DNA from: Pseudonocardia sp. T1-2H
Lineage (GTDB): Bacteria; Actinomycetota; Actinomycetes; Mycobacteriales; Pseudonocardiaceae
NCBI RefSeq assembly: GCF_038039215.1
Contig: NZ_JBBPCL010000001.1
Location: 4,774,001 to 4,838,000, forward strand
Direction of reading: 5' to 3'
DNA: 64,000 bases
Of the stretch, positions 1-23,676 are shown in pieces. How positions within the stretch are numbered: position 1 is the first letter of the stretch; every line of letters starts with the position of its first letter. The translations under genes were made by a program, and so were the position numbers. The notes below the pieces were generated by a model, which made no database searches, was not told the DNA's origin, and worked only from the letters and a program-made list of their open reading frames with translations.

Positions 1-30
1 AGGCCGGCGCGGGCCTTAGAAACGGCCTCA

Positions 31-56
31 GGGGCCTGGTTTGTAGGCCAGGCCCC
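31..56 (-). terminator. Hairpin after the 246-aa gene
   Basis: A 9-bp perfect stem (31-39 with 48-56) with an 8-nt loop lies just past the stop of the leftmost gene. There is no T-run, as is common for actinobacterial terminators. Confidence 0.5.
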
Positions 57-66
57 CCCGGGTCGA

Positions 67-807
67 TTAGTCCACGTCAATTGAACGGGCGAATGCGTCA
101 GCCGGGGAGACGAGGTTAAGCGTCCCGCCTACCCGGATGATTCCCACGTGCGGAGCTAGGCCCCCGAGGAACAGACCACTATCGCCACGCGCATAGGCAC
201 GGTGCAGCTCCACGGCCCTGAGGGCCTGGGCCTGGTCCTCGAACGAACCGAGGCGGGCCACCGTGAGGGCCGCCGGTCCAGCCTGCTTCTGAACCCCTAC
301 CTCGTGCCCCTCAGCCTTCATGAGGGCCGTATATGCGGCCCATGCCTTAGCCAGCGGTACGACGGTCTGCTTAGCCTCCAGGAGGGCCGCTGAAACATCC
401 GGCGAGATATCCAGCAGTCCCATGCCAGAAAGGTCGGGAATCCGCTCCACGACGGACACGAAAGCGGGTACAGCCGCGTTGTACTTGTCGCAGACAGCGG
501 CAAAGAGTCCGTCCAGGTGCGGAGAGACTGCCGTACGTAGGGCACGCTCTCGGGCTGAACCGACATGTCCGGCCAGAACCTCCGGCAGCATCTGCTTAAT
601 CACCGCCGCGTGGGCCAGCTCCAGGACCGCCTTGTCAAACGCCCTCTGGTCCTTGGCCGCTGCTAGAGCTTCCTCAGCCTCATAAGTCGTCGGATGCGTA
701 ACCCTGAAGCTGCTTCGCTCTACGGCCGTGCGGATCTCATCCGGAACCGGAATGTCCAGAGCGGCGAAGGTGGAAACGATCGAACGTGCATCGTGGATAA
801 GTGCCAT
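67..807 (-). CDS. Hypothetical protein of the integrated element, 246 aa
   Basis: I do not recognise this protein. It is Ala-rich and largely helical by appearance, with no signal peptide, no membrane segment and no nucleotide-binding motif. A GGGAG ribosome site lies about 8 nt before the ATG. It is the last gene before the left edge and is followed by a hairpin. It starts 13 bp after the stop of the 131-aa gene, so the two are probably co-transcribed. Its distal position could fit a structural or packaging accessory protein of a phage-derived element, but nothing in the sequence proves that. Confidence 0.7.
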   Translation of the reverse strand: MALIHDARSIVSTFAALDIPVPDEIRTAVERSSFRVTHPTTYEAEEALAAAKDQRAFDKAVLELAHAAVIKQMLPEVLAGHVGSARERALRTAVSPHLDGLFAAVCDKYNAAVPAFVSVVERIPDLSGMGLLDISPDVSAALLEAKQTVVPLAKAWAAYTALMKAEGHEVGVQKQAGPAALTVARLGSFEDQAQALRAVELHRAYARGDSGLFLGGLAPHVGIIRVGGTLNLVSPADAFARSIDVD

Positions 808-820
808 TGTATTTTCTCCC

Positions 821-1216
821 TTAGACGTTGTTTAGACGGCGCCCGCCGTTGCGGGCGATATCGCGTAGCATTCGGTTAAACTGACCTTCGGCGGTATCAA
901 AGTCCGCAAAGGGTGAATCTTCGACAGTCGAAACTCCCAGGCCCTGGGACGGATCGTAAGCCATTCGGCGCCACGATCCGTCAGGCTGTCGGCCGCCCGA
1001 CTCGATATGGTCGGGAATCTCCACCGTGACAGGCTGTCCCTTATTAAGCTGAGCCTCGATAACGGCGCGTAGTTCGGCCTCAGGGTCAGAGTCGGTATCC
1101 GGATTAGCGTCAGCCGATGCCTGAGCTACATCCTGAAGGGTAATCGTCCGGTTAAGCTGAGCCCGGATAACGTCATTAAACGCCTGAAGCTCTGCCGGAC
1201 TCGGTCCGCTAGTCAT
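821..1216 (-). CDS. Hypothetical protein of the integrated element, 131 aa
   Basis: Unrecognised, acidic, helical-looking soluble protein. An Asp/Glu-rich stretch (about residues 38-48) separates an N-terminal helix-rich part from a C-terminal part ending in Arg/Asn-rich residues. Translation is likely coupled to the preceding 46-aa gene through an ATGA overlap, and an AGGAG site lies ahead of the ATG. It belongs to the same leftward transcription unit as the 246-aa gene. Confidence 0.7.
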   Translation of the reverse strand: MTSGPSPAELQAFNDVIRAQLNRTITLQDVAQASADANPDTDSDPEAELRAVIEAQLNKGQPVTVEIPDHIESGGRQPDGSWRRMAYDPSQGLGVSTVEDSPFADFDTAEGQFNRMLRDIARNGGRRLNNV

Positions 1217-1353
1217 GCCTTACTCCTATCGTCGTCAATTAGTCGGCGCAGCCACTCAGCCAATTCTTGCCGGTCGTATTCCGGCAGTAGCCTCACCCAA
1301 AGCATTATCTCAAGTAGCGTCACAATCGCATTCCCCGTTAGGGCCGCAGTCAT
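1213..1353 (-). CDS. Small hypothetical protein, 46 aa
   Basis: A short reading frame with one hydrophobic/amphipathic helix followed by a charged tail rich in Asp and Arg (RRLIDDDRSKA). Its TGA stop overlaps the ATG of the 131-aa gene as ATGA, and its start lies inside the 55-aa gene upstream, giving a chain of overlapping genes typical of compact mobile elements. It has several Leu CTA codons, like its neighbours. The start is uncertain: ATG at 1353, or an internal GTG. Confidence 0.5.
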   Translation of the reverse strand: MTAALTGNAIVTLLEIMLWVRLLPEYDRQELAEWLRRLIDDDRSKA

Positions 1354-1477
1354 AGGCCCGCGTCATCAAAACGTCATTGATACTCGACACGAGGTGCGGC
1401 GACTTGTCGGGACTCTTTCGGAGCGCGATCAGCTCTTGGGTGGACATGCTCTCCAGGATTGCATCGGCGATAATCAT
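1310..1477 (-). CDS. Small hypothetical protein, 55 aa
   Basis: The ATG is preceded by AGGAG at good spacing. The protein starts with a helical segment containing STQELIALRKS and ends with three Cys in the last twelve residues (CGPNGECDCDAT), which might bind metal. It overlaps the next gene by 44 bp in another frame. Function unknown. The ribosome site and position in the operon are the main support. Confidence 0.55.
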   Translation of the reverse strand: MIIADAILESMSTQELIALRKSPDKSPHLVSSINDVLMTRAYDCGPNGECDCDAT

Positions 1478-1516
1478 TGGTGTCTCCTAATTGTTGGATT
1501 GAAACGGGGGGCTAAC

Positions 1517-1726
1517 TCAGTCGTCGGTCTTCAGGTCCCGAACGTCGACCCTCAGGGCCTGGGCCAGCTTTGCCAGATTTTCGTGGTGGGGCTTGCGTAG
1601 CCCTGTCATGTATCGATGGATCGCCACATCGGAAAGTCCGATCTTTCGGGCTAGCTGGGCCTGGGAGAGTCCGGACTTATAAATGGCCGCACGGATCTTC
1701 GCCGTATCGGCAGGGTTGTTCTTCAT
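1517..1726 (-). CDS. XRE-family (Cro/CI-type) HTH regulator, 69 aa
   Basis: A small DNA-binding protein made almost wholly of one HTH_3 domain: SGLSQAQLARKIGLSDVAIHRYMTG is the classic helix-turn-helix (about residues 16-40), followed by a PHHENLAKLAQAL helix. I prefer the ATG at 1726 over the GTG at 1732 because an AAGGGG site then lies 5 nt ahead. It is probably the repressor or copy-control switch of the element, acting on nearby promoters. The target is not visible. Confidence 0.85.
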   Translation of the reverse strand: MKNNPADTAKIRAAIYKSGLSQAQLARKIGLSDVAIHRYMTGLRKPHHENLAKLAQALRVDVRDLKTDD

Positions 1727-1826
1727 CGTCACCCCTTACGGGTAATAGGTAGTTGGTCGGTAACAACCTGGGCATGCCGAAGAGGCCCCATCCCAGGATG
1801 GGAGGGGGCTAAGCCTGAGCTGTGGG

Positions 1827-1859
1827 GGACCGGCCTTACCGAAGGAGTAAGGCCGGTCC
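1827..1859 (-). terminator. Perfect 13-bp hairpin between the Cys-rich gene and the XRE gene
   Basis: Arms 1827-1839 and 1847-1859 are exact complements with a 7-nt loop. It follows the stop of the 197-aa gene in its direction of transcription. The 175-bp gap here probably also carries the promoter of the XRE gene. Confidence 0.55.
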
Positions 1860-1907
1860 GGCTGACATCGCGGAGCGTGAACGTTCTACCGTCCCATCCA
1901 TAGGGAA

Positions 1908-2501
1908 TTACGGTGACGCTAGGGCTAGTTCCTTCTCGGCCTTCCTGCGTGCCCGATAGTCACGAGACTTCTGCCTGTTCCGTGCCCTCTGGCAGTCGAG
2001 GGCCTGGCAGTATTCCCGGGGCCTACCCGCACCCTGCCAATTCGCATTCGCCACGCACCAATTGCAACGGCACGTCTGCCCATTCGGGAAACCCGGCGCT
2101 TCCGTGACGTACTTCCCGTTACTGAACTCGCAGATCCAGCGATCAGACGGCACATAGATGCGGGTCTGGCAGTGAGCGCACCGCCTCGGCTCGGACGGGG
2201 CCTTAACGGACTCGACCATGAATCCGTGCCCGTTGGATAGAAGATCCGCAACAGCCACAGACCGGCGCTTGCCTAGCCCTAGCTTTACCGATGGATTCAC
2301 TGACGCGCCGTCTAGGTCCAGATCCTCCGGAGAGCCGATCTCGTGATCATCGAGGTTGCTCCCGTCGTCATAGACGCGGAAGTCATCGGGCTCGGCGTCG
2401 AGGGTGCTTAGAGCGGCCTTCACGCTCTCGGGGGCCTCGTCAGGCTCCAGGCCCTTAGGCGGGTCCTGGGGCACTGTGGCGTTAATGCGTGTGTTCATCA
2501 T
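1908..2501 (-). CDS. Cys-rich putative zinc-binding protein, 197 aa
   Basis: The N-terminal half is acidic and disordered-looking. The C-terminal half has eight cysteines: C108 and C111 (CAHC), C124, C144, C146 and C149 (CRCNWC), C165 and C170. It ends in a very basic helix (RNRQKSRDYRARRKAEKE). This layout suggests one or two zinc ribbons plus a nucleic-acid-binding tail. I do not recognise the family. An AAGGAG site precedes the ATG pair at 2501/2498. Leu CTA codons occur repeatedly in its C-terminal region, marking it as foreign to the host. Confidence 0.75.
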   Translation of the reverse strand: MMNTRINATVPQDPPKGLEPDEAPESVKAALSTLDAEPDDFRVYDDGSNLDDHEIGSPEDLDLDGASVNPSVKLGLGKRRSVAVADLLSNGHGFMVESVKAPSEPRRCAHCQTRIYVPSDRWICEFSNGKYVTEAPGFPNGQTCRCNWCVANANWQGAGRPREYCQALDCQRARNRQKSRDYRARRKAEKELALASP

Positions 2502-2532
2502 GGGTCTCCTTCATGTTGTGTGCGGACAGCAG

Positions 2533-2568
2533 AGGACCCCGCTAAGCCCTAAGGCTCAACGGGGTCCT
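2533..2568 (-). terminator. Hairpin upstream of the Cys-rich gene
   Basis: Nine-bp arms 2533-2541 and 2560-2568 enclose an 18-nt partly self-complementary loop. It follows the 132-aa gene in the direction of transcription and precedes the Cys-rich gene. Confidence 0.5.
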
Positions 2569-2614
2569 AAGCGTGGGTTAGCTCTTAGCTAGTCGGACGG
2601 CGACGGTCGGCAGG

Positions 2615-3013
2615 CTAAGCCCCGGCAGATCGAAACGGTGCGGACGGGATCGGCCGGCCGCTCTTAGAGCGGTGGACAGACCGGGCCTCATCGGGCCCGG
2701 AGAAGTTGACTCCCGGGACCTTAGGAGGTGCCGCAGTGGCCGTTAGGTCACGAGGGTCGGTAGCCCTTAGGTCTGCCTCCGGGGACTCTGTGGAGTGGAC
2801 GAGGCGGGTAGGGGCCTCGTCGTGGTCCGTCCGGCCACCACGCCGGACTAGGAGTCGTGAATCCCGAGGCACCGTCAGGGTGCCTACGGTGGTGGTTAGC
2901 ACGACGTCGTCGCCGCGTAGGCGACTCTGGATTACGTGCCGTTCAGCGGCACCCCCCATGAGTACTGTGTCGCCGATCTTAATATCGGCGCTAACGATTC
3001 GCTTAGCGCTCAT
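2615..3013 (-). CDS. Hypothetical protein with beta-rich N-terminal domain, 132 aa
   Basis: Residues 1-55 alternate hydrophobic strands and turns (DIKIGDTVLMGG, VVLTTTVGTLTVP), suggesting a small SH3-like or KOW-like fold. The remainder is Pro/Ser/Arg-rich and probably disordered. An AAGGA site precedes the ATG. It is the first gene beyond the iteron array in the direction of transcription. Function unknown; a DNA- or RNA-binding accessory role would be a guess. Confidence 0.65.
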   Translation of the reverse strand: MSAKRIVSADIKIGDTVLMGGAAERHVIQSRLRGDDVVLTTTVGTLTVPRDSRLLVRRGGRTDHDEAPTRLVHSTESPEADLRATDPRDLTATAAPPKVPGVNFSGPDEARSVHRSKSGRPIPSAPFRSAGA

Positions 3014-3095
3014 CTCGTCCTTACGTAGAGCAGGGCGTTAGGCCCTGCCCCCAGGGTACAGAGGCCCGGCTGTGAGGGCCGACCCTCTCCACTAG

Positions 3096-3117
3096 GCAGC
3101 CCCTCTAAGGGGGCTGC
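3096..3117 (-). terminator. GC-rich hairpin between the iteron array and the 132-aa gene
   Basis: Eight-bp arms 3096-3103 and 3110-3117 with a 6-nt loop. A second weaker hairpin lies at about 3030-3050. Both are in the untranslated space before the 132-aa gene. Confidence 0.4.
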
Positions 3118-3154
3118 TAAGGATGACTAGCTTGTTCCTTGCCTATTGGGACCT

Positions 3155-3240
3155 CCCTTGGTTCCGGTCCCTTGGTTGTTCCTTCCTCCATCCTAGGAGA
3201 CAACCTCGGTTGTTAGACCTCGGTTGTTCCCTTGGTTGTT
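3155..3240. repeat. Iteron family A, five 12-bp direct repeats
   Basis: Five copies of MCCTYGGTTGTT start at 3155 (degenerate end), 3169, 3203, 3217 and 3229. They lie head-to-tail with centre distances of 12-34 bp, immediately left of iteron family B. The block is AT-richer than its surroundings. Confidence 0.75.
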
Positions 3241-3242
3241 AG

Positions 3243-3369
3243 CGTCGTAAGAACTACCACCCTGGGTGGTCAGAACTACCACGGTCAGGGTGGTAGGAAC
3301 TACCACGGTAGGAGCCTTCCCTGTCATCGCAACCGTGGTAAGAACTACCACCGTGGTAGAACCGACCAC
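3243..3369. repeat. Iteron family B, candidate origin of replication
   Basis: Five copies of an 18-bp unit, consensus CGTGGTAAGAACTACCAC, start at 3243, 3265, 3289, 3334 and 3352. The last copy is imperfect. Each unit is an imperfect dyad and all share one orientation. Spacings of 22, 24 and 45 bp place the first four roughly on one face of the helix. The array directly follows the stop of the initiator-like gene. Iterons beside a two-winged-helix initiator are the usual layout of plasmid and phage origins, so I infer an origin here. Confidence 0.7.
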
Positions 3370-3371
3370 GG

Positions 3372-4091
3372 TTACCTGTGAGCCCCGCAATCACACGAGG
3401 GAATCGCCAGCCGGTACACCTTAGCCCGTCCTCGGGTGTCCCCCGTGTCCACGAGCCATCCCGCCTCCACGAGTGCAGCCCTGCGCTTCTTCGTGTTCCG
3501 GCGATCCCAGCCGGTTAGCTCGCATACCTGTTCGTTCCCGACGAACACAGTTCCACTGTCCGGATCGTCAGTCCTTACCCGGACGTGCTCGCGGATCACA
3601 ACGCCTAGTAGCTTCACCATCGGTTGCGTCTTCGTGCACGAGGCAAGGGCAATCGTCCACTCCTTAGCGGACGCCAGGCCCTTAGCGGGGTCCCAGGACC
3701 AGGACCCCGTTTCCTCCCGAACCTTCAGAGGAGCCTCTGAGACCTCCGGAGAGGCTGATAGAGGTCCGTGGACGGGTTCCGATGCGTCCTCGGGAGGATC
3801 TGCCAGCAGAGGCAGCCTTAGAATCCCGCCCGTGGCGGTGAGCAGACCTAGGCGCCTTAGCTCACCAACGGCAATCGACATGTGCCGTTCCTCGCGTCGT
3901 GCCAGGGCCGCCAGCTCCCTAGCCTTGCCCTCCCACGCGAGATCCACTGCGTTCTCGGCCAGGGCATCGGCCACAGCGATGATGATATCCGTCGTACGTG
4001 GCGAGATATCCTCGGTCCAGCACTTAGCTGCGACTACTGCACCGTAATCGGTCCGGGCCTTGCCCTCAGGTAGTAGGTCGGCCGTGGTCAT
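3372..4091 (-). CDS. Two-winged-helix protein, probable replication initiator, 239 aa
   Basis: Two predicted winged-helix regions flank a Pro/Glu/Ser-rich linker. The first is about residues 20-95 (TTDIIIAVADALAENAV, then MSIAVGELRRLGLL). The second is about 155-232 (VGNEQVCELTGWDRRNTKKRRAALVEAGWLV). Paired winged helices are the architecture of iteron-binding plasmid initiators and of replication proteins of some phage-like elements. The gene abuts ten repeats, and its start is overlapped by the 53-aa gene. No helicase motif is present, so it would depend on a host helicase. An element-encoded transcription regulator remains possible. Confidence 0.7.
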   Translation of the reverse strand: MTTADLLPEGKARTDYGAVVAAKCWTEDISPRTTDIIIAVADALAENAVDLAWEGKARELAALARREERHMSIAVGELRRLGLLTATGGILRLPLLADPPEDASEPVHGPLSASPEVSEAPLKVREETGSWSWDPAKGLASAKEWTIALASCTKTQPMVKLLGVVIREHVRVRTDDPDSGTVFVGNEQVCELTGWDRRNTKKRRAALVEAGWLVDTGDTRGRAKVYRLAIPSCDCGAHR

Positions 4092-4227
4092 TCTTCGTAG
4101 TCCTTTGCTTCGCGGTCTTGCGGTCTAGCTGAGTAACGCCATGGGCTGGAATCAATCTGACTCCCACCATCCTCACGGTTTCGTATCGCCACGCGGGGCG
4201 CTTAGGCACGTTTAGCGGCGTAGGCAT
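4066..4227 (-). CDS. Small basic hypothetical protein, 53 aa
   Basis: The ATG lies 6 nt after a strong AAAGGAG site. The protein is basic (MPTPLNVPKRPAWRYETV at the start, a Lys/Arg/Thr-rich end) and its last 26 bp overlap the start of the initiator gene in another frame, suggesting coupled translation. No family recognised. Confidence 0.55.
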   Translation of the reverse strand: MPTPLNVPKRPAWRYETVRMVGVRLIPAHGVTQLDRKTAKQRTTKNDHGRPTT

Positions 4228-4256
4228 TGTCAACTCCTTTCGTCAGTGCGGTTTGC

Positions 4257-4400
4257 TTACTTGCGTCGGAACTTACGCATCCCCTCCCTTGCAGTGTTCC
4301 TGCGGCACGGGCGGCAACGGAGGTAGCCGCTACCGCACTCCCGGTACGTGTCCGCGTTGTCTCCGCGCGGCCTACCGCAGCACCTGAAGACGGGCGTCAT
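4257..4400 (-). CDS. Small Cys-rich protein, zinc-ribbon-like, 47 aa
   Basis: The start codon has an ideal AAGGAG site 6 nt upstream. Five cysteines (C7, C8, C22, C29 and C32, the last pair as CRPC) and a strongly basic C-terminus suggest a tiny zinc-bound nucleic-acid-binding protein. It lies 29 bp before the 53-aa gene and 42 bp after an intrinsic terminator, so it may be expressed by read-through or from a promoter inside that gap. Confidence 0.6.
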   Translation of the reverse strand: MTPVFRCCGRPRGDNADTYRECGSGYLRCRPCRRNTAREGMRKFRRK

Positions 4401-4442
4401 CACTCGCTCCTTACGTGGGTGTGTTAGCCAGAGAAGGGCACG

Positions 4443-4482
4443 AAAAAGGGGCCGGGGGCCACCTGGTGGTGGCTCCCAGCCC
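4443..4482 (-). terminator. Intrinsic terminator with T5 tract
   Basis: On the minus strand a 15-bp stem (4468-4482 with 4449-4463, two G:T pairs) with a 4-nt loop is followed directly by TTTTT (4443-4447). This is a textbook rho-independent terminator for the 81-aa gene, or an attenuator for the genes to its left. It is the only one in the window that I saw with a clear T tract. Confidence 0.8.
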
Positions 4483-4581
4483 TCTACCTACTACTTTACT
4501 CGGGCACGCAACACCCTCTGAACTGCGAGGATGTGCTAGGTGTTCGGGACGATGGTTCCGGACCTGCGGGAAGTAGCCGGC

Positions 4582-4827
4582 CTACCGCTCGCCCTCGGAC
4601 CTCTTACGGTCCCTGATCTGCTCCGCCCTGACGGCGCGAACCTTCCCGGTCCCACCACATTCAGGGCATCTCGTCCTTGTGGGCGGGGCCATCGTGAGGC
4701 CTTTCAGTCGTAAGGAAACCGCCTGTCGGCTAGTGCCGAACATGCCTGCGATCTCGCCATGGGTGTAGCCCTCGCCAACCAGGCCGACGAGGATTTCCGT
4801 GCTCGGGAGCTTGCGATGTCCTGCCAT
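4582..4827 (-). CDS. HTH protein with CxxC motif, 81 aa
   Basis: Residues 20-43 (YTHGEIAGMFGTSRQAVSLRLKG) form a clear helix-turn-helix like that of sigma-region-4 or resolvase-type domains. A CPECGGTGK motif follows (C54, C57), resembling half of a DnaJ-type zinc ribbon, then a basic tail. A TAGCGT -10 box (4834-4839) sits 6 nt before the ATG, fitting a leaderless transcript. It lies next to the integrase, so it may act as an excisionase or directionality regulator, which is an inference from position only. Confidence 0.75.
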   Translation of the reverse strand: MAGHRKLPSTEILVGLVGEGYTHGEIAGMFGTSRQAVSLRLKGLTMAPPTRTRCPECGGTGKVRAVRAEQIRDRKRSEGER

Positions 4828-4871
4828 GATCGGACGCTACAGCCGGGGGCCACTATCCCAATGGGACGAGG

Positions 4872-5768
4872 TCACAGCCGGTCGCCGAGGGCTGCCCTAC
4901 GGTGGGCCTCCCGGGCTCGCTCATCCGCCGCACTAGCCGCGTATCGGCTAAGCATGTCCCGGGATCTCCAGCCTGTAAGCCTCATGAGGTCTGTCTCCCC
5001 TCCCCCGGATGCCAACCAACGGTGGGCGAACGTGTGGCGTAGTTGGTGGGGGTAGATGCGACCTAGCCCGGCCTGGTGACCGCGCCTTAGCAGGGCCTCC
5101 CGGATTCCCTGATCTGTCATCCAGCCCTTACGGCCGATCCACAGATACGGAGTATTGGACATAGAGTGCCGTTTCCTGGCCCTCAGATAGCGCGTAAGCG
5201 CCTCCCCGGTCTTAACTCCGAACGGAACCATCCGGGGCCGTCTCCCCTTACCCAAGACGGTTGCAACGTCCACGGTGAAGTCCAGGCCTTCAACGGTGAT
5301 GTTCGATAGTTCAGCCACGCGGACCCCAGTATCGATCAGGAATCGGATTAGGGCGGTGTCCCTAAGCGCGTCAAAGTCTCGTCCCTGACAGGTGGCGAGT
5401 AGTCGCTTCAGCTTAGCGTCCGTTAGGACAGGGACGGGCTTCTCCGGAACGTGCGGAGCACTCATCCGAGCGAAAGGCGATTCCGGAATGATGTCCTCGG
5501 CCGTTAACCACCGATAGAACTGCTGAAGTGATCGGTAATGCCGTGCCACGTAGGAAGGGCTTAGCGGCTTACCGGTCCGGGAGTTCACCGACCCGCTGAA
5601 GGAGGCGAAGTAGTCCTCCAGGCCCTCGCGGTCTGTCCTGCCCTGGTGGACGGTCACGAACCGTTCGGCCGCCTCGACGTAGGAGTCGATCGTCCGGGGT
5701 GCCCGGTTGACGGCTCGAAGGTGCCGTCTCCAGTCCGGAATCAGCTCTGCCAGCTCCCGTGTGTCCAC
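4872..5768 (-). CDS. int: Tyrosine recombinase / phage-type integrase, 298 aa
   Basis: Catalyses site-specific integration and excision of the element. The N-terminal SAM-like core-binding domain spans about residues 5-95 and the catalytic domain 110-295. The catalytic set is visible: R150 (TGVRVAEL), K174 (GKGRRPR), H241 and R244 (HQLRHTF), W267 in the H/W position (LTGWRS), and nucleophile Y276 (SRYA). Length is that of the XerC/D-like phage integrases. The GTG start has no ribosome site, but a TACTTT -10 box 8 nt upstream suggests a leaderless mRNA. It lies 100 bp from the broken tRNA-Met, which I take as its attachment site. Confidence 0.95.
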
Positions 5769-5776
5769 GGATCAGC

Positions 5777-5796
5777 AAAGTACGTTGCGGTAGTTC
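5777..5796 (-). promoter_or_regulatory. int: Integrase promoter with an iteron-like half site
   Basis: A TACTTT -10 box (5777-5782) lies 8 nt before the integrase GTG. The -35 zone contains GAACTACCGC (5787-5796, minus strand), nine of ten bases identical to the conserved half of iteron family B. This could let the initiator protein touch the integrase promoter. Confidence 0.4.
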
Positions 5797-5825
5797 CAGA
5801 AGCCAGTACGCCATGTACGGCATAT

Positions 5826-5842
5826 CCGTTGTGCGACAACGG
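5826..5842. repeat. 7-bp inverted repeat near the attachment junction
   Basis: CCGTTGT and ACAACGG arms separated by 3 bp, about 30 bp inside the element from the tRNA break. It may be an integrase arm or core site. Nothing else supports a function. Confidence 0.35.
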
Positions 5843-5870
5843 GTTTCACTGCCTGAGTCTGTCGATCATG

Positions 5871-5909
5871 TTATGAGTCCGCTGCTCTGACCAACTGAGC
5901 TACTGCCCC
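5871..5909 (-). tRNA. tRNA-Met (CAT), 5' half only, at the right attachment junction
   Basis: Reading leftward from 5909, the sequence gives a tRNA acceptor strand (GGGGCAG), a D arm (GCTC/GAGC), the 5' strand of the anticodon stem (GCGGA) and the loop CTCATAA with anticodon CAT. Where the 3' strand of the anticodon stem should follow, element sequence begins. The gene here is therefore truncated. A whole copy, if any, must lie at the other end of the element, outside this window. Confidence 0.85.
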
Positions 5910-5963
5910 GTCCGCCCAGGTTAGCGACCCCGCTCGACGTCCGGATCAGCCAGGTGGGCCGCC

Positions 5964-5987
5964 GCGACGCGCCCCGAAGCGCGTCGC
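5964..5987 (-). terminator. Hairpin after the SRPBCC gene
   Basis: Nine-bp arms 5964-5972 and 5979-5987. It follows the SRPBCC gene in its direction of transcription. The 200 bp between the tRNA fragment and that gene hold no other convincing feature. Confidence 0.45.
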
Positions 5988-6112
5988 GGGGCGCGCCGCA
6001 GCCACGCGACGGTCACGATTCCCGTCCACTCCTCGGCGCTGAGCGCGTCAGCGCGGAAGCGTCACGGGTAGCCGTCGAGGTGCGGAGTCGAGAACGACAG
6101 GGCGGACGACAG

Positions 6113-7958: not shown

Positions 7959-8563
7959 TCAGCGGAGCGGGGAAGATTGGAGAGAATCATCTCCGCCATG
8001 CGGCGGGAGCGGGCGCAGGGATCTGGATCCCGGCCTGCGAAGTCGCCATTGGCAACGATTCCTTGGTAATCAGCGATCGCTACGACCAGTGAACAACCCG
8101 TCATGGGAGTGCGATCCGCTCGGCGCGCCGGGTAGCCTTTAACTTCTGTCGCCTCGAAGGTGACGAACGATTCTTTCACGAGATCGAGAGATTCGAGCAC
8201 CGGGATCGCGAAGTCCGTTCGCACCTGGACTGAAGCAACGTTGGCTCGATCATCTGCTCGTTCCCAGCCGCACGTCGGAGCGCGGGAGACAGTGGTGGTG
8301 TCCTTCGCGCTCGCCGCGCGGAGACCCACCTCGACGAGTTGTCCTGAGGTGAACAGCTCGCAAGGGTTTCGCCCTCGAACATCTCGAGGATTGACCACGC
8401 GCTGGGTCGAGGACAACGGCGGCTGCGCCGACATGACGGCGGATGGTGCGACAGAAGGATCCGCAGTCGTCTCGGCGGCTCCTTCAGATTTCTGCGTCCG
8501 ACTTACCGAGCAAGCGGCGAGAACCAGCAAGAGGACCACCAACGGTATCTGGCCGTGCCTCAT
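7959..8563 (-). CDS. DUF3558 family lipoprotein (C-terminal frame probably shifted)
   Basis: The signal peptide has a lipobox (LVVLLLVLAACS), so the product should be anchored outside the membrane. DUF3558 hallmarks follow: NPCELFTSGQLVEVGL, PTCGWERA, and the late Cys pair region (MTGCSLVVAI, DPCARSRRMAEMIL). As read, the frame runs on to 7739, 203 bp into the PPE gene. Adding one base to the GGGG run at 7969-7972 instead ends the protein in NLPPLR with a stop at 7959-7961, 17 bp before the PPE start. I take that as the true end. The ATG overlaps the stop of the upstream 141-aa gene (ATGA). Confidence 0.8.
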
Positions 8564-8985
8564 AGTGTCAGAGCGCTCTCTGAATCCTGAGCTCTATACG
8601 CCTCCAATTGATGCTGCAGACCGTTTCGCGTGGATTCGAGCTGCGCTATCCAGGCCAGCATCCACTCCTGAGCGCGTGTAGCCATTTCACCAGCGTTCCT
8701 GGCCACGTTGATGCTGACCGGATCCTGGGAGGGGGGTGCGAAAGCGAGGGCAGAGCCTGCCGTGACGGCGAATCGCAGATCCCTGATCACCGCAGTCAAC
8801 TCGTCGATACACGCCTGTGCCTTCTCCGGGTCGACCCGAAACCCCGTCCCCACCCCACCCGGCCCCGGCCGCAGCGACAGCTCGATCGCTACGCGCGACT
8901 CCGCGAGATCGTTGAGCACCTTCTGGCGGCTGTGCTCGTACGCCTCGCCCTCGAGCCCACCGGTCGACTCCCCCATGGCGGACAT
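8560..8985 (-). CDS. Helical ESX-associated hypothetical protein, 141 aa
   Basis: A soluble, almost all-helical protein without signal peptide, with paired helices about residues 10-40 and 50-80 and a C-terminal helix (ATRAQEWMLAWIAQLESTRNGLQHQLEAY). The size and helix pattern fit WXG100-like or EspG-companion proteins encoded beside PPE genes, although a canonical WxG turn is not visible. Its stop overlaps the start of the DUF3558 gene, so the pair is translationally coupled. It is the first gene of the three-gene unit 8985-6652. Confidence 0.6.
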   Translation of the reverse strand: MSAMGESTGGLEGEAYEHSRQKVLNDLAESRVAIELSLRPGPGGVGTGFRVDPEKAQACIDELTAVIRDLRFAVTAGSALAFAPPSQDPVSINVARNAGEMATRAQEWMLAWIAQLESTRNGLQHQLEAYRAQDSESALTL

Positions 8986-9026
8986 CGTGCCAGCCCGTGA
9001 TCGATCCCGTGGCCGTTCGCCGAAAC

Positions 9027-19396: not shown

Positions 19397-20089
19397 CTAT
19401 CCCGGTGCGTTGCGGCCGCCCTCGCCGGCCGCCTCGAGCACCGAGTTCATGGCGCGGGAGAACGTCTGCCATTCTCGCCGCCGCGACGCGAGGACGCGCT
19501 CCCCGAACGAGGTCAACCGGTAGCGGCGGGACCCGCTCTGCCACGTGTCCTGCATCAGCCGGTCGTTCCTGAGCCGATGCAGCTCGCGGTAGACGGTGGC
19601 CGGGGACAGCACGAAGACCCCACCACTGCGGCCTCGGACGAGATCGACCAGCTCGCGGCCCGTGGCGGGACCCCGGGCGGCCATCGCGAGCAGCAGCATG
19701 TCGATGTGCTGCCGGTCCCGGATCCGCGTGATGCGAGGACGCCGGTGAGGCGCGGGATCGTGCGAACGCCGGGAGCCGACCGGTCGGCGCACCCGGCCCG
19801 CTGAAGGATCGCGCCGGTTCACCGGCACCCTCCGCTCATCCTCCACGACTTCCGGCGGCGGCAGGTCCGGCTCCTCCCGGACGGGCTCCCCGGTCCGCGT
19901 CGGGGGCGGGTCCTCGGCCACGTCGTCCGCGCGGGAACGGCGGGCGAGAACGCTGCGCCGCAGTGACGACGCGGCCGCGACGCCGAACGCGGACGAGAGG
20001 TCGAGGACGGCGCCGTTGCGGAGGGCACCGTCGCGGACGGCGCCGTTGTGACGGGGGTCCCCGGGCGAGGCCGGGCTCGGCGACGTCAT
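19397..20089 (-). CDS. PadR-like winged-helix regulator with long disordered N-terminus, 230 aa
   Basis: The C-terminal half (about residues 120-230) is a PadR-type winged helix: IDMLLLAMAARGPATGRELVDLV, then VFVLSPATVYRELHRLRNDRLM, the wing TWQSGSRRYRLTSFG, and a final dimerisation helix. The first 120 residues are Arg/Pro/Glu-rich and probably disordered, which is unusual for PadR proteins (mostly about 110 or 180 aa). Its ATG overlaps the stop of the ParA gene by 4 bp (ATGA), so the two are co-translated. This suggests it works with, not only regulates, the ParA/collagen-like locus. Confidence 0.85.
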   Translation of the reverse strand: MTSPSPASPGDPRHNGAVRDGALRNGAVLDLSSAFGVAAASSLRRSVLARRSRADDVAEDPPPTRTGEPVREEPDLPPPEVVEDERRVPVNRRDPSAGRVRRPVGSRRSHDPAPHRRPRITRIRDRQHIDMLLLAMAARGPATGRELVDLVRGRSGGVFVLSPATVYRELHRLRNDRLMQDTWQSGSRRYRLTSFGERVLASRRREWQTFSRAMNSVLEAAGEGGRNAPG

Positions 20090-21042
20090 GCGGGCGCCGA
20101 CGCCCCGCCGGGGGTCCCGGCCCGTTCGGCCTCCTCGGCCGCCTGTAACGCGCTGAGCACCTCGACCCCCAGGGCGCGGTAGTCACCGGCCACGCTGGCG
20201 GCGCTCGGCGAGACCCGCGGGGTGCGGATGTCCAGCCGCAACGCCTCCCACCACGCCGGCTGCGCCGCCAGCTCGATCTCGAGTTCGTGTGCGAGCTTGC
20301 CGAGGCGACGCGCGTCCTGGGCGGTGCGCTCCGCGTGCCGGATGGTCGTCGCGAACCGCGGCGAGTCGCCACCGAACGCCCTGTCGATGGCTGCACGGGC
20401 CTCACTGTGGATCGCGCGTGAGCGGCTGCCGGTGTCGAAGAGCACCACGCCGAGCAACCCCAGACGCGGGTTGATCTCCCGCGCGAGCGTGAACCGTTCC
20501 GCGACGAGGCCCATCCCCACGAGGCCCCCGAGATCCGACTTCGTCGGCATCAGCACCCATCGCGACGCCGCGAGCGCCAGGTCGGAGAGGATCGTCGACT
20601 CCGGCGGACAGTCCACGAACACGACCTCGTAGTCGGTCGCGACCGGGGCCAGCACGTCCCCGAGCACGCGGAACGCCTTGCGTCCGTGGTGCTGCAGGCG
20701 CGACACCATGACCGGGGTCAGGTCCTCGAGCCGCGCGCCACCGCACACCACGTCCAGCTGCGGACGCACGTTCGGCGCCGGGACGAGCGGCGTGCCGGCC
20801 AGGACACTGCCGAGCAGACCGGCGCCCTGGTCGTCGACGTCCGTGCCGCGGTAGCCGAGGTCGTCGGCAAGGTTCGCCTGCCGGTTGAGGTCGATCAGGA
20901 GGCACCGATAACCCGCCCCGGCGAACTGGCCGCCGAGGTTCGCGGCGATTGACGTCTTCCCGACGCCACCCTTGTCGTTGACGATCGCGATGACGCGTCC
21001 CAATGCGAAATCGCGCACCTCGTCCTTCGAGCGCCTGGCCAC
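20086..21042 (-). CDS. ParA/MinD-type ATPase, 318 aa
   Basis: P-loop ATPase that normally positions DNA or protein cargo by cycling between dimer and monomer. The deviant Walker A motif KGGVGKTS (residues 24-31) has the signature first Lys. The switch region LIDLNRQANLADDLGY and Walker B segment VVFVDCPPES follow, then a C-terminal KSDLGGLVGMGLVAERF. It has no N-terminal HTH, and no ParB gene or parS site is visible nearby, so it is an orphan ParA rather than a chromosome-segregation one. The GTG at 21042 is chosen because GGAGG lies 5 nt upstream. The 231 bp upstream contain no gene. Confidence 0.9.
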   Translation of the reverse strand: MARRSKDEVRDFALGRVIAIVNDKGGVGKTSIAANLGGQFAGAGYRCLLIDLNRQANLADDLGYRGTDVDDQGAGLLGSVLAGTPLVPAPNVRPQLDVVCGGARLEDLTPVMVSRLQHHGRKAFRVLGDVLAPVATDYEVVFVDCPPESTILSDLALAASRWVLMPTKSDLGGLVGMGLVAERFTLAREINPRLGLLGVVLFDTGSRSRAIHSEARAAIDRAFGGDSPRFATTIRHAERTAQDARRLGKLAHELEIELAAQPAWWEALRLDIRTPRVSPSAASVAGDYRALGVEVLSALQAAEEAERAGTPGGASAPA

Positions 21043-21273
21043 GGGCACCTCCGCACCGATCGGCGACGGACGCCTTCGTCCGCGTTCCGCACCCCGTGCG
21101 CGCAGGGTGCAGCGCAGGCCTACCCGCGGACGAGGATCGACACGCCTCTGCCGCACCAGCACCATCGAAGTTCGCAGCGCTCAGCAGACCGGTCGGAGCA
21201 GAGCGCTACGCGGACCGGCCTACCAGGACCGAAGATTCACGCCGTCGGCTCCGCCGGGGCGGCACCCGGTCGC

Positions 21274-22218
21274 TCAGCGCTTCGGCCTCGCCGCTCGTTC
21301 GCTGATGGTCCGCCGACCGGTCTGCGTCCCACTTTCCGGGCGGGCGGCCTGACCACCCTTGCCGCGTCGGATGGGTGGTTGTTCCGCTCCCGACGCCGGC
21401 GATCCCGTCCGACGGGCCGGGCGCCCGGCCTGCGGCGCGTCGGCGTCCGCGCCGTCTCCTGCGCCGCTCGGGCGCTCCTCGGAGCTCCCCGTGGCCCGTT
21501 CGCGGGGCCGGGGTCGTGCCGGCGCAGGACCCTTGTCATCGACGTCTTCCGCTCGAGCGCCGCTGTCCGTCTCGGCGCTCTCCTTGCGGGCGGACCCACG
21601 CCGCCGGGGTCGAGGGCTGAGCAGATGACGGAGACTGCCTCTCTCGGGATCCGCCTCGTCCTGCTCGTCGGGTCCGGCGTCGCCTTCGGCCTGATCCTCG
21701 GGCTCCGAGTCGCCCTCGTCCTCGTCCTGCGCCGCGCTCTCGTCCTGGTCTTCGAGGTCGTCCTGGTCGTCGCCCTCCTCGTCGGCGTCCTCGAGATCCG
21801 CACCCTCCTCTTCGTCGAGGTCGGAGTCGTCCTCCTCGTCCTCGACGTCCTCCGCGTCCTCCAGTGGCGCGGTGTCCTCCTCGTCGTAGTCGTAGTCCTC
21901 CTCCGCGTCGACGGCCTCGTCCTGGTCCTCGACGTCGTCGGCGTCCTCGAGATCCGCACCCTCCTCTTCGTCGAGGTCGGAGTCGTCCTCCTCGTCCTCG
22001 ACGTCCTCCTCGTCCTCGACGTCCTCCGCGTCCTCCAGTGGCGCGGTGTCCTCCTCGTCGTAGTCGTAGTCCTCCTCCGCGTCGACGGCCTCGTCCTGGT
22101 CCTCGAACGCGGCGGCGGAGTCCGTGTCCTCGAGGGTGATGTGGATGTTCAGCTTCTTGGTGCCGAACATGATGTAGCCACTGATGTCGGCGGCGTTGAT
22201 CGGTGATGGTTCGCTCAC
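21274..22218 (-). CDS. Acidic tandem-repeat protein, 314 aa
   Basis: The N-terminal 30 residues look folded (ADISGYIMFGTKKLNIHITLED). Residues about 35-190 are almost only Asp, Glu and Ala with DYDYDEEDTAPLEDAEDVED repeated twice. The C-terminal 120 residues are Arg/Pro/Ser-rich and basic. No signal peptide or membrane segment. The two long repeats come from a near-perfect duplication in the DNA. The GTG start has an AAGGGAG site. It sits between the collagen-like and ParA genes on the same strand. It could act as an intracellular scaffold or client that pairs with the basic collagen-like N-terminus. No family recognised. Confidence 0.75.
   Translation of the reverse strand: MSEPSPINAADISGYIMFGTKKLNIHITLEDTDSAAAFEDQDEAVDAEEDYDYDEEDTAPLEDAEDVEDEEDVEDEEDDSDLDEEEGADLEDADDVEDQDEAVDAEEDYDYDEEDTAPLEDAEDVEDEEDDSDLDEEEGADLEDADEEGDDQDDLEDQDESAAQDEDEGDSEPEDQAEGDAGPDEQDEADPERGSLRHLLSPRPRRRGSARKESAETDSGARAEDVDDKGPAPARPRPRERATGSSEERPSGAGDGADADAPQAGRPARRTGSPASGAEQPPIRRGKGGQAARPESGTQTGRRTISERAARPKR
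21785..22110 (-). repeat. Tandem duplication of about 150 bp within the acidic-protein gene
   Basis: Unit 1 begins at 21785 and unit 2 at 21941 (period 156 bp). The units are nearly identical at DNA level, synonymous sites included, but the second has an extra 18 bp (GTCCTCCTCGTCCTCGAC type). Such identity points to recent duplication. Confidence 0.8.
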
Positions 22219-22677
22219 GGCGGATGACTCCCTTGGTGCAGTGGCTGTCGGTCGGGGCCGTGCCGAGTTCGGGAGAAGGCCAGGATCGCGAGGCGGCGAC
22301 CCGGTCGCGAGTCGAATCCCGGCGTCAGCGGTGGGTCCGCCGGACCGAGGGCGACGGAGACGTGATCTCGCGTGGCGCCGGCTCGGGCCGGTACCCGCCC
22401 CACGCGGCTCACCAATGGCCTTCTCCGATGCGCCTCGCTCCTCCGGGGACGCTTCTCGCGTGCCGGAGACGGCACACGTACTCGAAAGTCTTGTGTTGTC
22501 CGAATCACATACCCGTTCCGACGCCGCCGAACCTTCGGGCCCGGCGGGCCCGGACTCCTGACGCGCCCGTCGGCCGGCAGCGCCAGGAGGGTGCCGCAGG
22601 ACCGACGCAACGGGTACCGGGACGGCGCCCCGCGACCCTGGTGACGGGTACGAGGCGCCGTCTGCGGAGCTCGCCGG
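22219..22677. other. Intergenic space between the collagen-like and acidic-protein genes
   Basis: About 460 bp. A minus-strand open frame (start 22610) fills it but has Arg/Pro-rich shadow-like composition and no ribosome site, so I do not call a gene. It probably contains the promoter of the acidic-protein gene. Confidence 0.4.
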
Positions 22678-23676
22678 TCAGGCGATGGAGCGCACGCCGG
22701 ACCGATCGGCCGAGGATGCAGGATCGTCCTCGTTGGTGATCACGACGGCGCGCACCGCGAGGCCGCACTGCAGCTTGACGAGCCGGGAGGTCAGTTTCCG
22801 CCAGTACCTGTAGGTAGCTCGCGGGTCGATCACCGTGCGAGGTTTGACATCCACCGCTGCGCGAACCACATTGCGCACGAGTTCGCCGGCGCTCGGCACG
22901 GGGAAGGACGGGTGGCCGTCGACCTCCGAGCGACCTTGGACCCCGCGGATACCAGGCGGTCCGGGAGGACCAGCCGGGCCTTGGGGACCCTGCGGACCCT
23001 GGAGGCCGTCGATGCCCGGCGGGCCTGCCTCCCCCACCGGCCCACGTGGCCCCTGCATGCCACGTTCGCCCTGCTCACCGGTCTCCCCGATGACGCCGCG
23101 CTGCCCCGGCGCCCCCTGCTCACCCTGCTCGCCAGGCTTGCCGGGCGGGCCGGTCTCGCCCTGCGCGCCGGGCAGGCCCTGCGGCCCCACCGGCCCCTTG
23201 TCGCCCTGTTCACCCGGGAGGCCGGTGGAGCCGGGAAGGCCACGCGGGCCCTGCTCACCCGTCATCCCCTCGGGGCCCTTGTCCCCCTGCTCACCGAGCG
23301 GGCCGGGCGCGCCCTGCGGGCCCTTGTCCCCCTGCTCGCCCACCGGGCCGGGCGCGCCCTGCGGGCCCTTGTCCCCCGGCTCACCCACCGGGCCGGGCGC
23401 CCCCTGCGGGCCCTTGTCCCCTTGCTCGCCCACCGGGCCGGGCGCCCCCTGCGGGCCCTTCTCCCCCTGCTCACCGGTTCGACCCGGTACGCGCTTCGTG
23501 CGCTTGGACTCCGGCTCTCCGGCCGGTCCGGCTACTCGCTTGACGCCCTTGTCCGCTTTGCTGCGCGGCGCCGAGGCCGATCCGGCCACCCGCCGGAGGC
23601 CACGGCCACCGCGCTCGTCGTTCGAACTCCGGCCGCTCTTGCGGTCGTCCCGGATCACGTCTTCTGGTTGAGCCAT
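22678..23676 (-). CDS. Collagen-like Gly-X-Y repeat protein without signal peptide, 332 aa
   Basis: Residues 1-65 are basic and polar (GRSSNDERGGRGLRRVAG, ESKRTKRVPG). Residues about 66-245 are uninterrupted Gly-X-Y triplets such as GEQGDKGPQGAPGPV, many with Pro at X and Lys/Gln/Glu, as in bacterial collagen-like proteins. A C-terminal domain of about 85 residues follows (SAGELVRNVVRAAVDVKPRTVIDPRATYRYWRK, then LVKLQCGLAVRAVVI). No Sec signal, sortase motif or membrane anchor is visible, unlike surface collagen-like proteins, so I infer it is cytoplasmic or exported another way. It heads the leftward acidic-protein/ParA/PadR locus. Confidence 0.85.
   Translation of the reverse strand: MAQPEDVIRDDRKSGRSSNDERGGRGLRRVAGSASAPRSKADKGVKRVAGPAGEPESKRTKRVPGRTGEQGEKGPQGAPGPVGEQGDKGPQGAPGPVGEPGDKGPQGAPGPVGEQGDKGPQGAPGPLGEQGDKGPEGMTGEQGPRGLPGSTGLPGEQGDKGPVGPQGLPGAQGETGPPGKPGEQGEQGAPGQRGVIGETGEQGERGMQGPRGPVGEAGPPGIDGLQGPQGPQGPAGPPGPPGIRGVQGRSEVDGHPSFPVPSAGELVRNVVRAAVDVKPRTVIDPRATYRYWRKLTSRLVKLQCGLAVRAVVITNEDDPASSADRSGVRSIA
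23270..23480 (-). repeat. 45-bp tandem repeats in the collagen-like gene
   Basis: Roughly four and a half copies of a 45-bp unit encode GEQGDKGPQGAPGPV variants. Copies differ at only a few bases, so the array can change length by slippage. Confidence 0.8.

What the first reader, a model, noticed from the sequence alone, without database searches (positions are those of the whole stretch)
19397..23676. Four-gene locus: collagen-like protein, acidic repeat protein, ParA ATPase, PadR-like protein
Four same-strand genes encode a Gly-X-Y protein with no export signal and a basic head, a strongly acidic tandem-repeat protein with a basic tail, an orphan ParA without ParB or parS, and a PadR-like protein with a 120-residue disordered arm fused by ATGA overlap to ParA. 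The charge complementarity and the ParA suggest an intracellular assembly that is positioned by a ParA gradient, similar in logic to carboxysome (McdA/B) or plasmid positioning. I know of no described system with this set. The link among all four is inferred from order and strand; there are gaps of 459 and 231 bp.
Basis: partly seen in the sequence, partly recalled or inferred. Interest (0 to 1): 0.78.

Follow-up and report, generated by a model that had tools for sequence, protein, structure and literature searches.

The report
ParA module tied to gas vesicles
Three neighbouring genes of a soil actinobacterium encode a ParA-type ATPase and two candidate partner proteins, and in related bacteria this set often sits beside the genes for gas vesicles, which makes it a candidate system for placing or sharing out gas vesicles in the cell; the collagen-like fourth gene is probably a bystander.

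Summary
The four genes are real; three belong together: acidic protein, ParA, and a PadR protein with a basic disordered arm. The collagen-like gene does not travel with them. In Pseudonocardia, ParA orthologues (79% identity or more) occur in 18 of 62 genomes; 17 of the 18 carry gas vesicle (gvp) genes, against 39 of all 62. ParA lies within 5 kb of a gvp gene in 6 of the 18, in several arrangements, and in 9 of 10 Actinomycetospora-type genomes; in 8 of those 9 it opens a same-strand run ParA-PadR-gvp. In the window's own genome the gvp cluster is 2.6 Mb away. The PadR arm shares a motif with the RHH-like partners of related plasmid-type ParAs, so it looks like a ParB-like adaptor with an exchanged domain; six of twelve acidic proteins carry a look-alike of part of the arm. 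Best reading: a plasmid-type partition ParA recruited to position or partition gas vesicles (0.46). Rivals: regulation of gvp genes, or a biogenesis ATPase like the ArsA homologues already known from some gvp clusters (PMC2963123). No function is shown. I found no gas-vesicle ParA in the literature searched.

The parts
20086..21042 (-). ParA-family ATPase, 318 aa, GTG start (stop included)
   Evidence: PF13614 E 2e-22; PHROG ParA-like partition protein E 3.1e-33; start by alignment A2; deviant Walker A VNDKGGVGKT
20884..20886 (-). Codon for N53 of ParA, at the place of residue 44 (Asp) of the Soj chain 1wcv (motif DLNRQAN instead of DLDPQGN)
   Evidence: Alignment to 1wcv; DLNRQAN in 37 of 42 ParAs; D44A named as a Soj ATPase mutant in PMC9178275 (passage)
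19397..20089 (-). PadR-domain protein with N-terminal arm, 230 aa; ATGA overlap with ParA
   Evidence: PF03551; overlap; PadR match behind ParA in 17 of 18 genus genomes with the orthologue
19931..20002 (-). Arm motif DLSSAFGVAAASSLRRSVLARRSR, proposed ParA-binding element
   Evidence: Shared by PadR-type and RHH-like partners; short low-confidence helix 37-48 in the model
19418..19735 (-). Winged-helix PadR domain, residues 119-224
21274..22218 (-). Acidic protein, 314 aa
   Evidence: Head profile matches in 14 of 62 genus genomes; upstream of ParA in 13, on a separate contig in the 14th
22129..22218 (-). Conserved head of the acidic protein (predicted beta hairpin, residues 11-28)
   Evidence: Alignments A1, A5; AlphaFold pLDDT 91 and 88 for residues 11-20 and 21-30
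21634..22128 (-). Acidic low-complexity spacer, 98 D/E of 165 residues
   Evidence: the layout is seen in 11 of 12 proteins measured, the window's included
21604..21633 (-). Motif LRHLLSPRPR, similar to the second half of the PadR arm; followed by a basic tail

Best explanation
The module is a plasmid-type partition system recruited to gas vesicles. ParA-ATP would bind the nucleoid (inferred). Partners carrying the basic arm would bind ParA and release it: the PadR protein (N-terminal arm plus winged helix) and, in Pseudonocardia, perhaps the acidic protein (hairpin head, long acidic spacer, partial arm-like motif). One or both would attach to gas vesicles or to their assembly site, so that the vesicles are spaced or shared between daughter cells or hyphal compartments. 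Shown here: gene set, arm motif, synteny with gvp clusters in relatives, kinship to plasmid ParAs. Inferred: ParA binding by the arm, attachment to vesicles, positioning. In the window's genome the module would act in trans on a gvp cluster 2.6 Mb away.
For: (1) Adjacency: ParA within 5 kb of a gvp gene in 6 of 18 Pseudonocardia and 9 of 10 Actinomycetospora-type genomes, in at least four arrangements: gvp downstream on the same strand, gvp upstream on the same strand, convergent, or next to a solitary gvpA. (2) Co-occurrence: 17 of 18 ParA genomes and 14 of 14 acidic-head genomes have gvp, against 39 of 62 overall (Fisher p 0.0007 and 0.0005). (3) In the own genome a PadR paralogue (50% identity in the domain) lies upstream of the gvp cluster. 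(4) The arm motif is shared with partners of plasmid-type ParAs; 160 plasmid records hold relatives of this ParA, the five nearest 53-57% identical. (5) Partner proteins of other ParA/MinD systems bind through basic, disordered N-termini (PMC10241942, PMC12204374; passages).
Against: In the window's genome module and gvp cluster are 2.6 Mb apart, and in 12 of 18 Pseudonocardia genomes no gvp gene was found near the module (9.7-20 kb fetched, 64 kb for the window; some contigs end nearby). 22 of 39 gvp-positive genus genomes lack this ParA, and two Actinomycetospora-type genomes (G206, G175) have a gvp cluster without the ParA-PadR pair beside it, so gvp clusters do not need it. One ParA-PadR genome (G048, about 90% complete) has no gvp match and no acidic head; one (G021) has gvp, ParA and acidic gene but no PadR. 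The Asp at position 44 of Soj is Asn here. The head is not related to GvpA by profile. The PadR domain is a transcription-factor fold. Another ATPase family, the ArsA homologues, is known in gvp clusters and was read as a biogenesis factor (PMC2963123, passages). Co-occurrence is not corrected for phylogeny. Whether these bacteria make gas vesicles is not known from these data.
Confidence: 0.46

Rival explanations
1. Regulatory pair: the PadR protein is a transcription factor of the gvp genes and ParA is its ATP-dependent modulator, analogous in logic to haloarchaeal GvpD (NTP-binding repressor) and GvpE (activator).
For: Good PadR winged helix; in 8 Actinomycetospora-type loci the pair opens a same-strand run into gvp; an armless PadR paralogue lies upstream of the own gvp cluster; GvpD/GvpE precedent (PMC9501494, passages).
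Against: The arm is shared with RHH-like partners of plasmid-type ParAs; PadR is absent in G021 while ParA and acidic gene stay; no clear excess of shared DNA words between module and gvp upstream regions in 7 genomes (a weak test).
Confidence: 0.28
2. Biogenesis ATPase: ParA energises a step of vesicle assembly rather than positioning, as proposed for the ArsA homologues and GvpN found in other gvp clusters.
For: ArsA homologues, which share the deviant-Walker superfamily (recalled), are encoded within gvp clusters of several phyla (PMC2963123, passages); ParA opens the gvp run in Actinomycetospora.
Against: This protein is ParA-type, not ArsA-type (AAA_31 80 bits, ArsA 22 bits, below its cut-off), and the gvp-linked ArsA homologues are two-domain proteins of about 600 aa against 318 aa; more than half of the gvp-positive genus genomes do without it (22 of 39).
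Confidence: 0.1
3. Partition remnant: a ParA with its DNA-binding partner left from an integrated plasmid or serving chromosome partition; the gvp neighbourhood is accidental.
For: Plasmids hold relatives at 53-57%; in the tree the PadR-type rows lie among RHH-type rows.
Against: Repeated adjacency to gvp in two genera and several arrangements; partner domain PadR; conserved acidic gene.
Confidence: 0.11
4. Four-gene assembly as first proposed: collagen-like and acidic proteins form a charge-complementary body moved by ParA.
For: Gene order in the window; charges; collagen family and ParA co-occur (p 0.002).
Against: In the other genomes with hits the collagen family is not found next to ParA, and it occurs in 5 gvp-negative genomes.
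Confidence: 0.03

Closest known systems
McdA/McdB carboxysome positioning
   Same: ParA-family ATPase with a partner that has a short basic N-terminal element and a disordered part; association with a protein-shelled organelle
   Different: Partner is a PadR winged-helix protein plus, in Pseudonocardia, an acidic protein; putative cargo is gas vesicles, not a microcompartment; McdB homology was not tested
Type I plasmid partition of actinobacterial plasmids (ParA plus RHH-like partner)
   Same: ParA 53-57% identical to the five nearest plasmid-borne relatives; same N-terminal arm motif in the partner; same DLNRQAN motif in the close plasmid-type ParAs
   Different: Chromosomal, partner domain PadR instead of RHH, linked to gvp clusters in relatives, added acidic gene; no parS found
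ArsA homologues in gas vesicle gene clusters (PMC2963123, passages seen)
   Same: An ATPase other than GvpN encoded within gvp clusters
   Different: ArsA family, two domains, about 600 aa, proposed to energise biogenesis; here a single-domain ParA with a partition-type partner
pNOB8 ParA-ParB-AspA (Sulfolobus)
   Same: ParA with an adaptor and a centromere-binding partner (PMC9178275, passage); that AspA is PadR-like is recalled, not from a call
   Different: There the adaptor and the DNA-binding protein are separate; here arm and PadR domain are one chain
GvpD/GvpE of haloarchaea
   Same: NTP-binding protein and transcription factor next to gvp genes
   Different: Regulation of transcription; kinship of GvpD to ParA was not tested

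Membership tests
ParA/MinD (Walker-type) ATPases | Deviant Walker A, KGGVGKT | tested here: met
   VNDKGGVGKT; invariant in 13 of 13
ParA/MinD (Walker-type) ATPases | ParA homology | tested here: met
   AAA_31 E 2e-22, PHROG ParA E 3.1e-33, PDB ParA/Soj hits
Canonical Soj-type ParA | Asp equivalent to Soj D44 | tested here: not met
   N53 in the alignment; DLNRQAN in 37 of 42 ParAs
ParA/MinD partner protein | Basic, disordered N-terminal element | tested here: met
   Arm with RR..LARRSR; block pLDDT 46-61 over residues 1-110. The motif was found by pattern in 20 of 27 PadR-domain proteins (L040 by a literal pattern), by eye in 2 more, not in 5
ParA/MinD partner protein | Binds and stimulates its ParA | not testable with these tools
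   Needs an experiment
McdAB | Encoded with carboxysome or microcompartment genes | not tested
   No microcompartment family search was run
Type I plasmid partition | Carried on a plasmid | tested here: not met
   Window lies on a 6.6-Mb contig
Type I plasmid partition | parS-like centromere repeats | tested here: inconclusive
   No inverted repeat common to the regions upstream of the acidic gene was seen; the sites are unknown
Gas vesicle gene cluster | Adjacent to gvp genes | tested here: inconclusive
   Not in the own genome; yes in 6 of 18 Pseudonocardia and 9 of 10 Actinomycetospora-type genomes
PadR regulators | PadR winged helix | tested here: met
ArsA ATPases | Pfam ArsA_ATPase cut-off | tested here: not met
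   22.3 bits against a cut-off of 24.3
GvpD/GvpE pair | Homology to GvpD or GvpE | not tested
   No dedicated comparison was made
Collagen-like adhesins (Scl, Lcl) | NCBIfam score cut-off | tested here: not met
   Best 117.6 bits against a cut-off of 500

The most novel reading that the evidence does not exclude
The first dedicated positioning or inheritance system for gas vesicles: a plasmid partition ParA was turned into an organelle-positioning ATPase by exchanging the DNA-binding domain of its partner (RHH to PadR) while keeping the ParA-binding arm, and Pseudonocardia later added a second, acidic adaptor that carries part of the same arm. It would also run on a ParA with Asn at the position of the Soj D44.
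Probability: 0.4. Interest if true: 0.85.

Novelty: new variant of a known kind. Interest (0 to 1): 0.66.

Why it matters
ParA-type ATPases position carboxysomes, chemotaxis clusters and plasmids; gas vesicles are a classic bacterial organelle, and I found no system described for their placement or inheritance in the library searched. A gvp-linked ParA with an identified arm motif and named strains makes that question testable. It would also show how a plasmid partition system changes cargo, by exchange of the partner's domain, and would suggest a partner and cargo for a group of otherwise orphan ParAs.

Tried and rejected
Collagen-like gene as a member: rejected, scattered in relatives. Homologues of the acidic protein by word search with residues 1-45: none found; a profile of heads found 14 genomes. 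Head as a GvpA relative: not supported (hhalign probability 0.2%); Foldseek had no match at E 0.001 or better, 36 at E up to 10. Common operator of module and gvp genes: no clear excess of shared words over shuffles in 7 genomes (counts within the shuffle range throughout; in the own genome 20 words of 10 bases against a mean of 12.1 and a maximum of 26). Promoter and terminator scans: 0 and 0. Rfam: only a tRNA in the window. Searches used a home-made gene caller that misses low-complexity genes, so gene absence was judged by tblastn and profile. The structural comparison rows shown did not list AspA; that is no evidence either way. Literature: searches listed no gas-vesicle ParA; judged by listings except for PMC7317143, PMC7325909, PMC4982088, PMC9501494, PMC12081810, PMC2963123 and PMC9956245, of which I saw passages. 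PMC4982088 has no hit for ParA, partition, MinD, segregat or PadR. PMC2963123, at first passed over in the listing, turned out to report ArsA homologues in gvp clusters; after reading its passages I added a rival and lowered the best explanation from 0.5 to 0.46, the novel case from 0.42 to 0.4 and the interest from 0.68 to 0.66. The library holds open-licence papers only.
Full report
What is in the window. Four minus-strand genes are present as described. Relatives place the ParA start at the GTG at 21042, giving 318 residues. ParA and PadR overlap by ATGA. The collagen-like protein has 62 uninterrupted Gly-X-Y triplets. The acidic protein has a 30-residue head, a spacer with 98 D/E in 165 residues, the motif LRHLLSPRPR and a basic tail.

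Which genes belong together. The window lies in a 7.0-Mb genome on contig C1. Among 62 genus genomes, 35 have some ParA match at E 1e-20 and 18 have an orthologue of 79% identity or more. A profile of acidic heads finds 14 of 62 genomes; in 13 the head lies just upstream of ParA, in the 14th (G047) it is on another contig, and the ParA contig of G047 begins with an acidic tail. Of the 18, four have no head match: G029, G042, G049 (module beside gvp) and G048. A PadR match follows ParA in 17 of the 18; it is missing in G021. The C-terminal family of the collagen-like protein is in 14 of 62 genomes; outside this genome its hits lie on other contigs than ParA or far from it, the nearest about 63 kb away in G029. 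Its presence is unrelated to gvp (9 of 14 against 30 of 48, p 0.58) but correlates with ParA (9 of 14 against 9 of 48, p 0.002), which I read as shared ancestry. The module is therefore acidic gene, ParA, PadR.

The link to gas vesicles. Gene calling around relatives showed gvp genes beside the module, confirmed by Pfam for GvpA-type, GvpF/L, GvpG, GvpK and GvpO proteins in L039. PF00741 occurs in 39 of 62 genus genomes, in 17 of the 18 with the ParA orthologue and in all 14 with the acidic head; Fisher p is 0.0007 and 0.0005, and 0.001 and 0.0008 without the near-duplicate G016. These p values ignore phylogeny. Adjacency is stronger evidence: in Pseudonocardia ParA lies within 5 kb of a gvp gene in 6 of 18 genomes (G012, G017, G049, G029, G042 with several gvp genes, G010 with one gvpA-like gene), and in genus g42, which contig lengths identify as Actinomycetospora, in 9 of 10 genomes with a ParA of 64% or more. 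In 8 of those 9 the order on one strand is ParA, PadR, then the gvp cluster (in L135 up to the contig end); the ninth has a solitary gvpA right behind PadR. The arrangements in Pseudonocardia differ: gvp downstream (L039), gvp upstream (L041), convergent (L043, L047, L050), or a convergent solitary gvpA (L049). Against this, in 12 of 18 Pseudonocardia genomes no gvp gene was near, and the g42 genomes G206 and G175 have gvp clusters without the pair. A scan of named genomes gave 33 loci, Pseudonocardia and Actinomycetospora for the close ones; 24 have the PadR partner, and gvp genes are seen in 13 of these 24 and in none of the other 9, two of which belong to the PadR group of the tree (L154, no PadR found; L169, ParA near a contig end). 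These loci overlap with the unnamed set and are not independent. In the window's own genome a multi-gene gvp cluster is at C1:2,209,835-2,213,201, 2.6 Mb from the module, with an armless PadR paralogue upstream of it.

The acidic protein. In 11 of 12 proteins measured, the window's included, the layout is head, D/E-rich spacer (50-64%), L..LL..R.R motif, basic tail; in the twelfth (L051) my pattern missed the motif. A matrix built from 9 PadR arms scores the motif of 6 of 12 acidic proteins at 12.6-23.3, above every unrelated ORF among 823 (best 9.3); the other 6 score 2.2-7.2, within background. The peptides were chosen by eye, so this is a lead. The head is predicted as a beta hairpin and is not related to GvpA by profile.

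The ATPase. Residue 44 (Asp) of the Soj chain 1wcv aligns with N53; DLNRQAN occurs in 37 of 42 ParAs, the close plasmid-type ones included. D44A is described as an ATPase mutant of Soj (PMC9178275, passage). Hydrolysis may be slow here, or served by another residue; since plasmid relatives share the change it need not abolish function.

Mechanism. I favour positioning or partition of gas vesicles (0.46) over regulation of gvp transcription (0.28) and a role in biogenesis (0.1). For positioning: the partition ancestry, the arm, the acidic second partner. For regulation: the PadR fold, the place at the head of the gvp run, the GvpD/GvpE precedent (PMC9501494, passages). For biogenesis: ArsA homologues are encoded in gvp clusters of several phyla and were proposed to energise a biogenic step (PMC2963123, passages); they are two-domain proteins of about 600 aa, and the window protein misses the ArsA cut-off. 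A search for shared DNA words between module and gvp upstream regions found no clear excess, which is weak. Whether these bacteria make gas vesicles is not known from these data.

Prior work. Searches for gas vesicle with ParA, ATPase and positioning (0 papers), ParA family (0), ParA and Serratia (2, off topic by title), PadR (14, ten listed; two seen by passages, no link described), partitioning protein (3, by title unrelated), Pseudonocardia (5, by title unrelated) and ParA with partition (126, top 20 listed, where the term also matches words such as 'parameter') gave no description of a gas-vesicle ParA. The nearest is PMC2963123 on ArsA homologues. The library lacks most subscription journals.

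Noticed in passing
L096:5929-6357 (G000:C1:2200000-2219500): An armless PadR paralogue (143 aa, 50% to the window PadR in the domain) lies upstream of the own gvp cluster on the opposite strand; the same is seen in G047 (L108).
   Followed up: partly
L103, L104, L110, L113, L114, L140, L049: Solitary gvpA-like genes (L104 and L113 with gvpO); in L140 and L049 beside the ParA module.
   Followed up: partly
G000:C1:2265883-2266068 and G029:C1:4101243-4101458: Copies of the collagen-like C-terminal family lie about 53-56 kb from the gvp cluster in two genomes.
   Followed up: no
window 20884-20886: The Asp at Soj position 44 is Asn in this ParA group, close plasmid-type members included.
   Followed up: partly
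L038/L154 downstream of ParA: Pseudonocardia kunmingensis keeps the acidic gene and ParA but no PadR was found behind ParA.
   Followed up: partly
L052: G048 keeps ParA-PadR but lacks the acidic head and any gvp match (genome about 90% complete).
   Followed up: partly
L047 and L050, upstream of ParA: A conserved divergent gene (178-190 aa by my gene call, family not searched) stands where the acidic gene would be in two genomes with the module beside gvp.
   Followed up: no
window 1-6000 and 8001-9000: GC is 0.57-0.63 against about 0.70-0.76 over most of the rest, possibly a foreign stretch.
   Followed up: no
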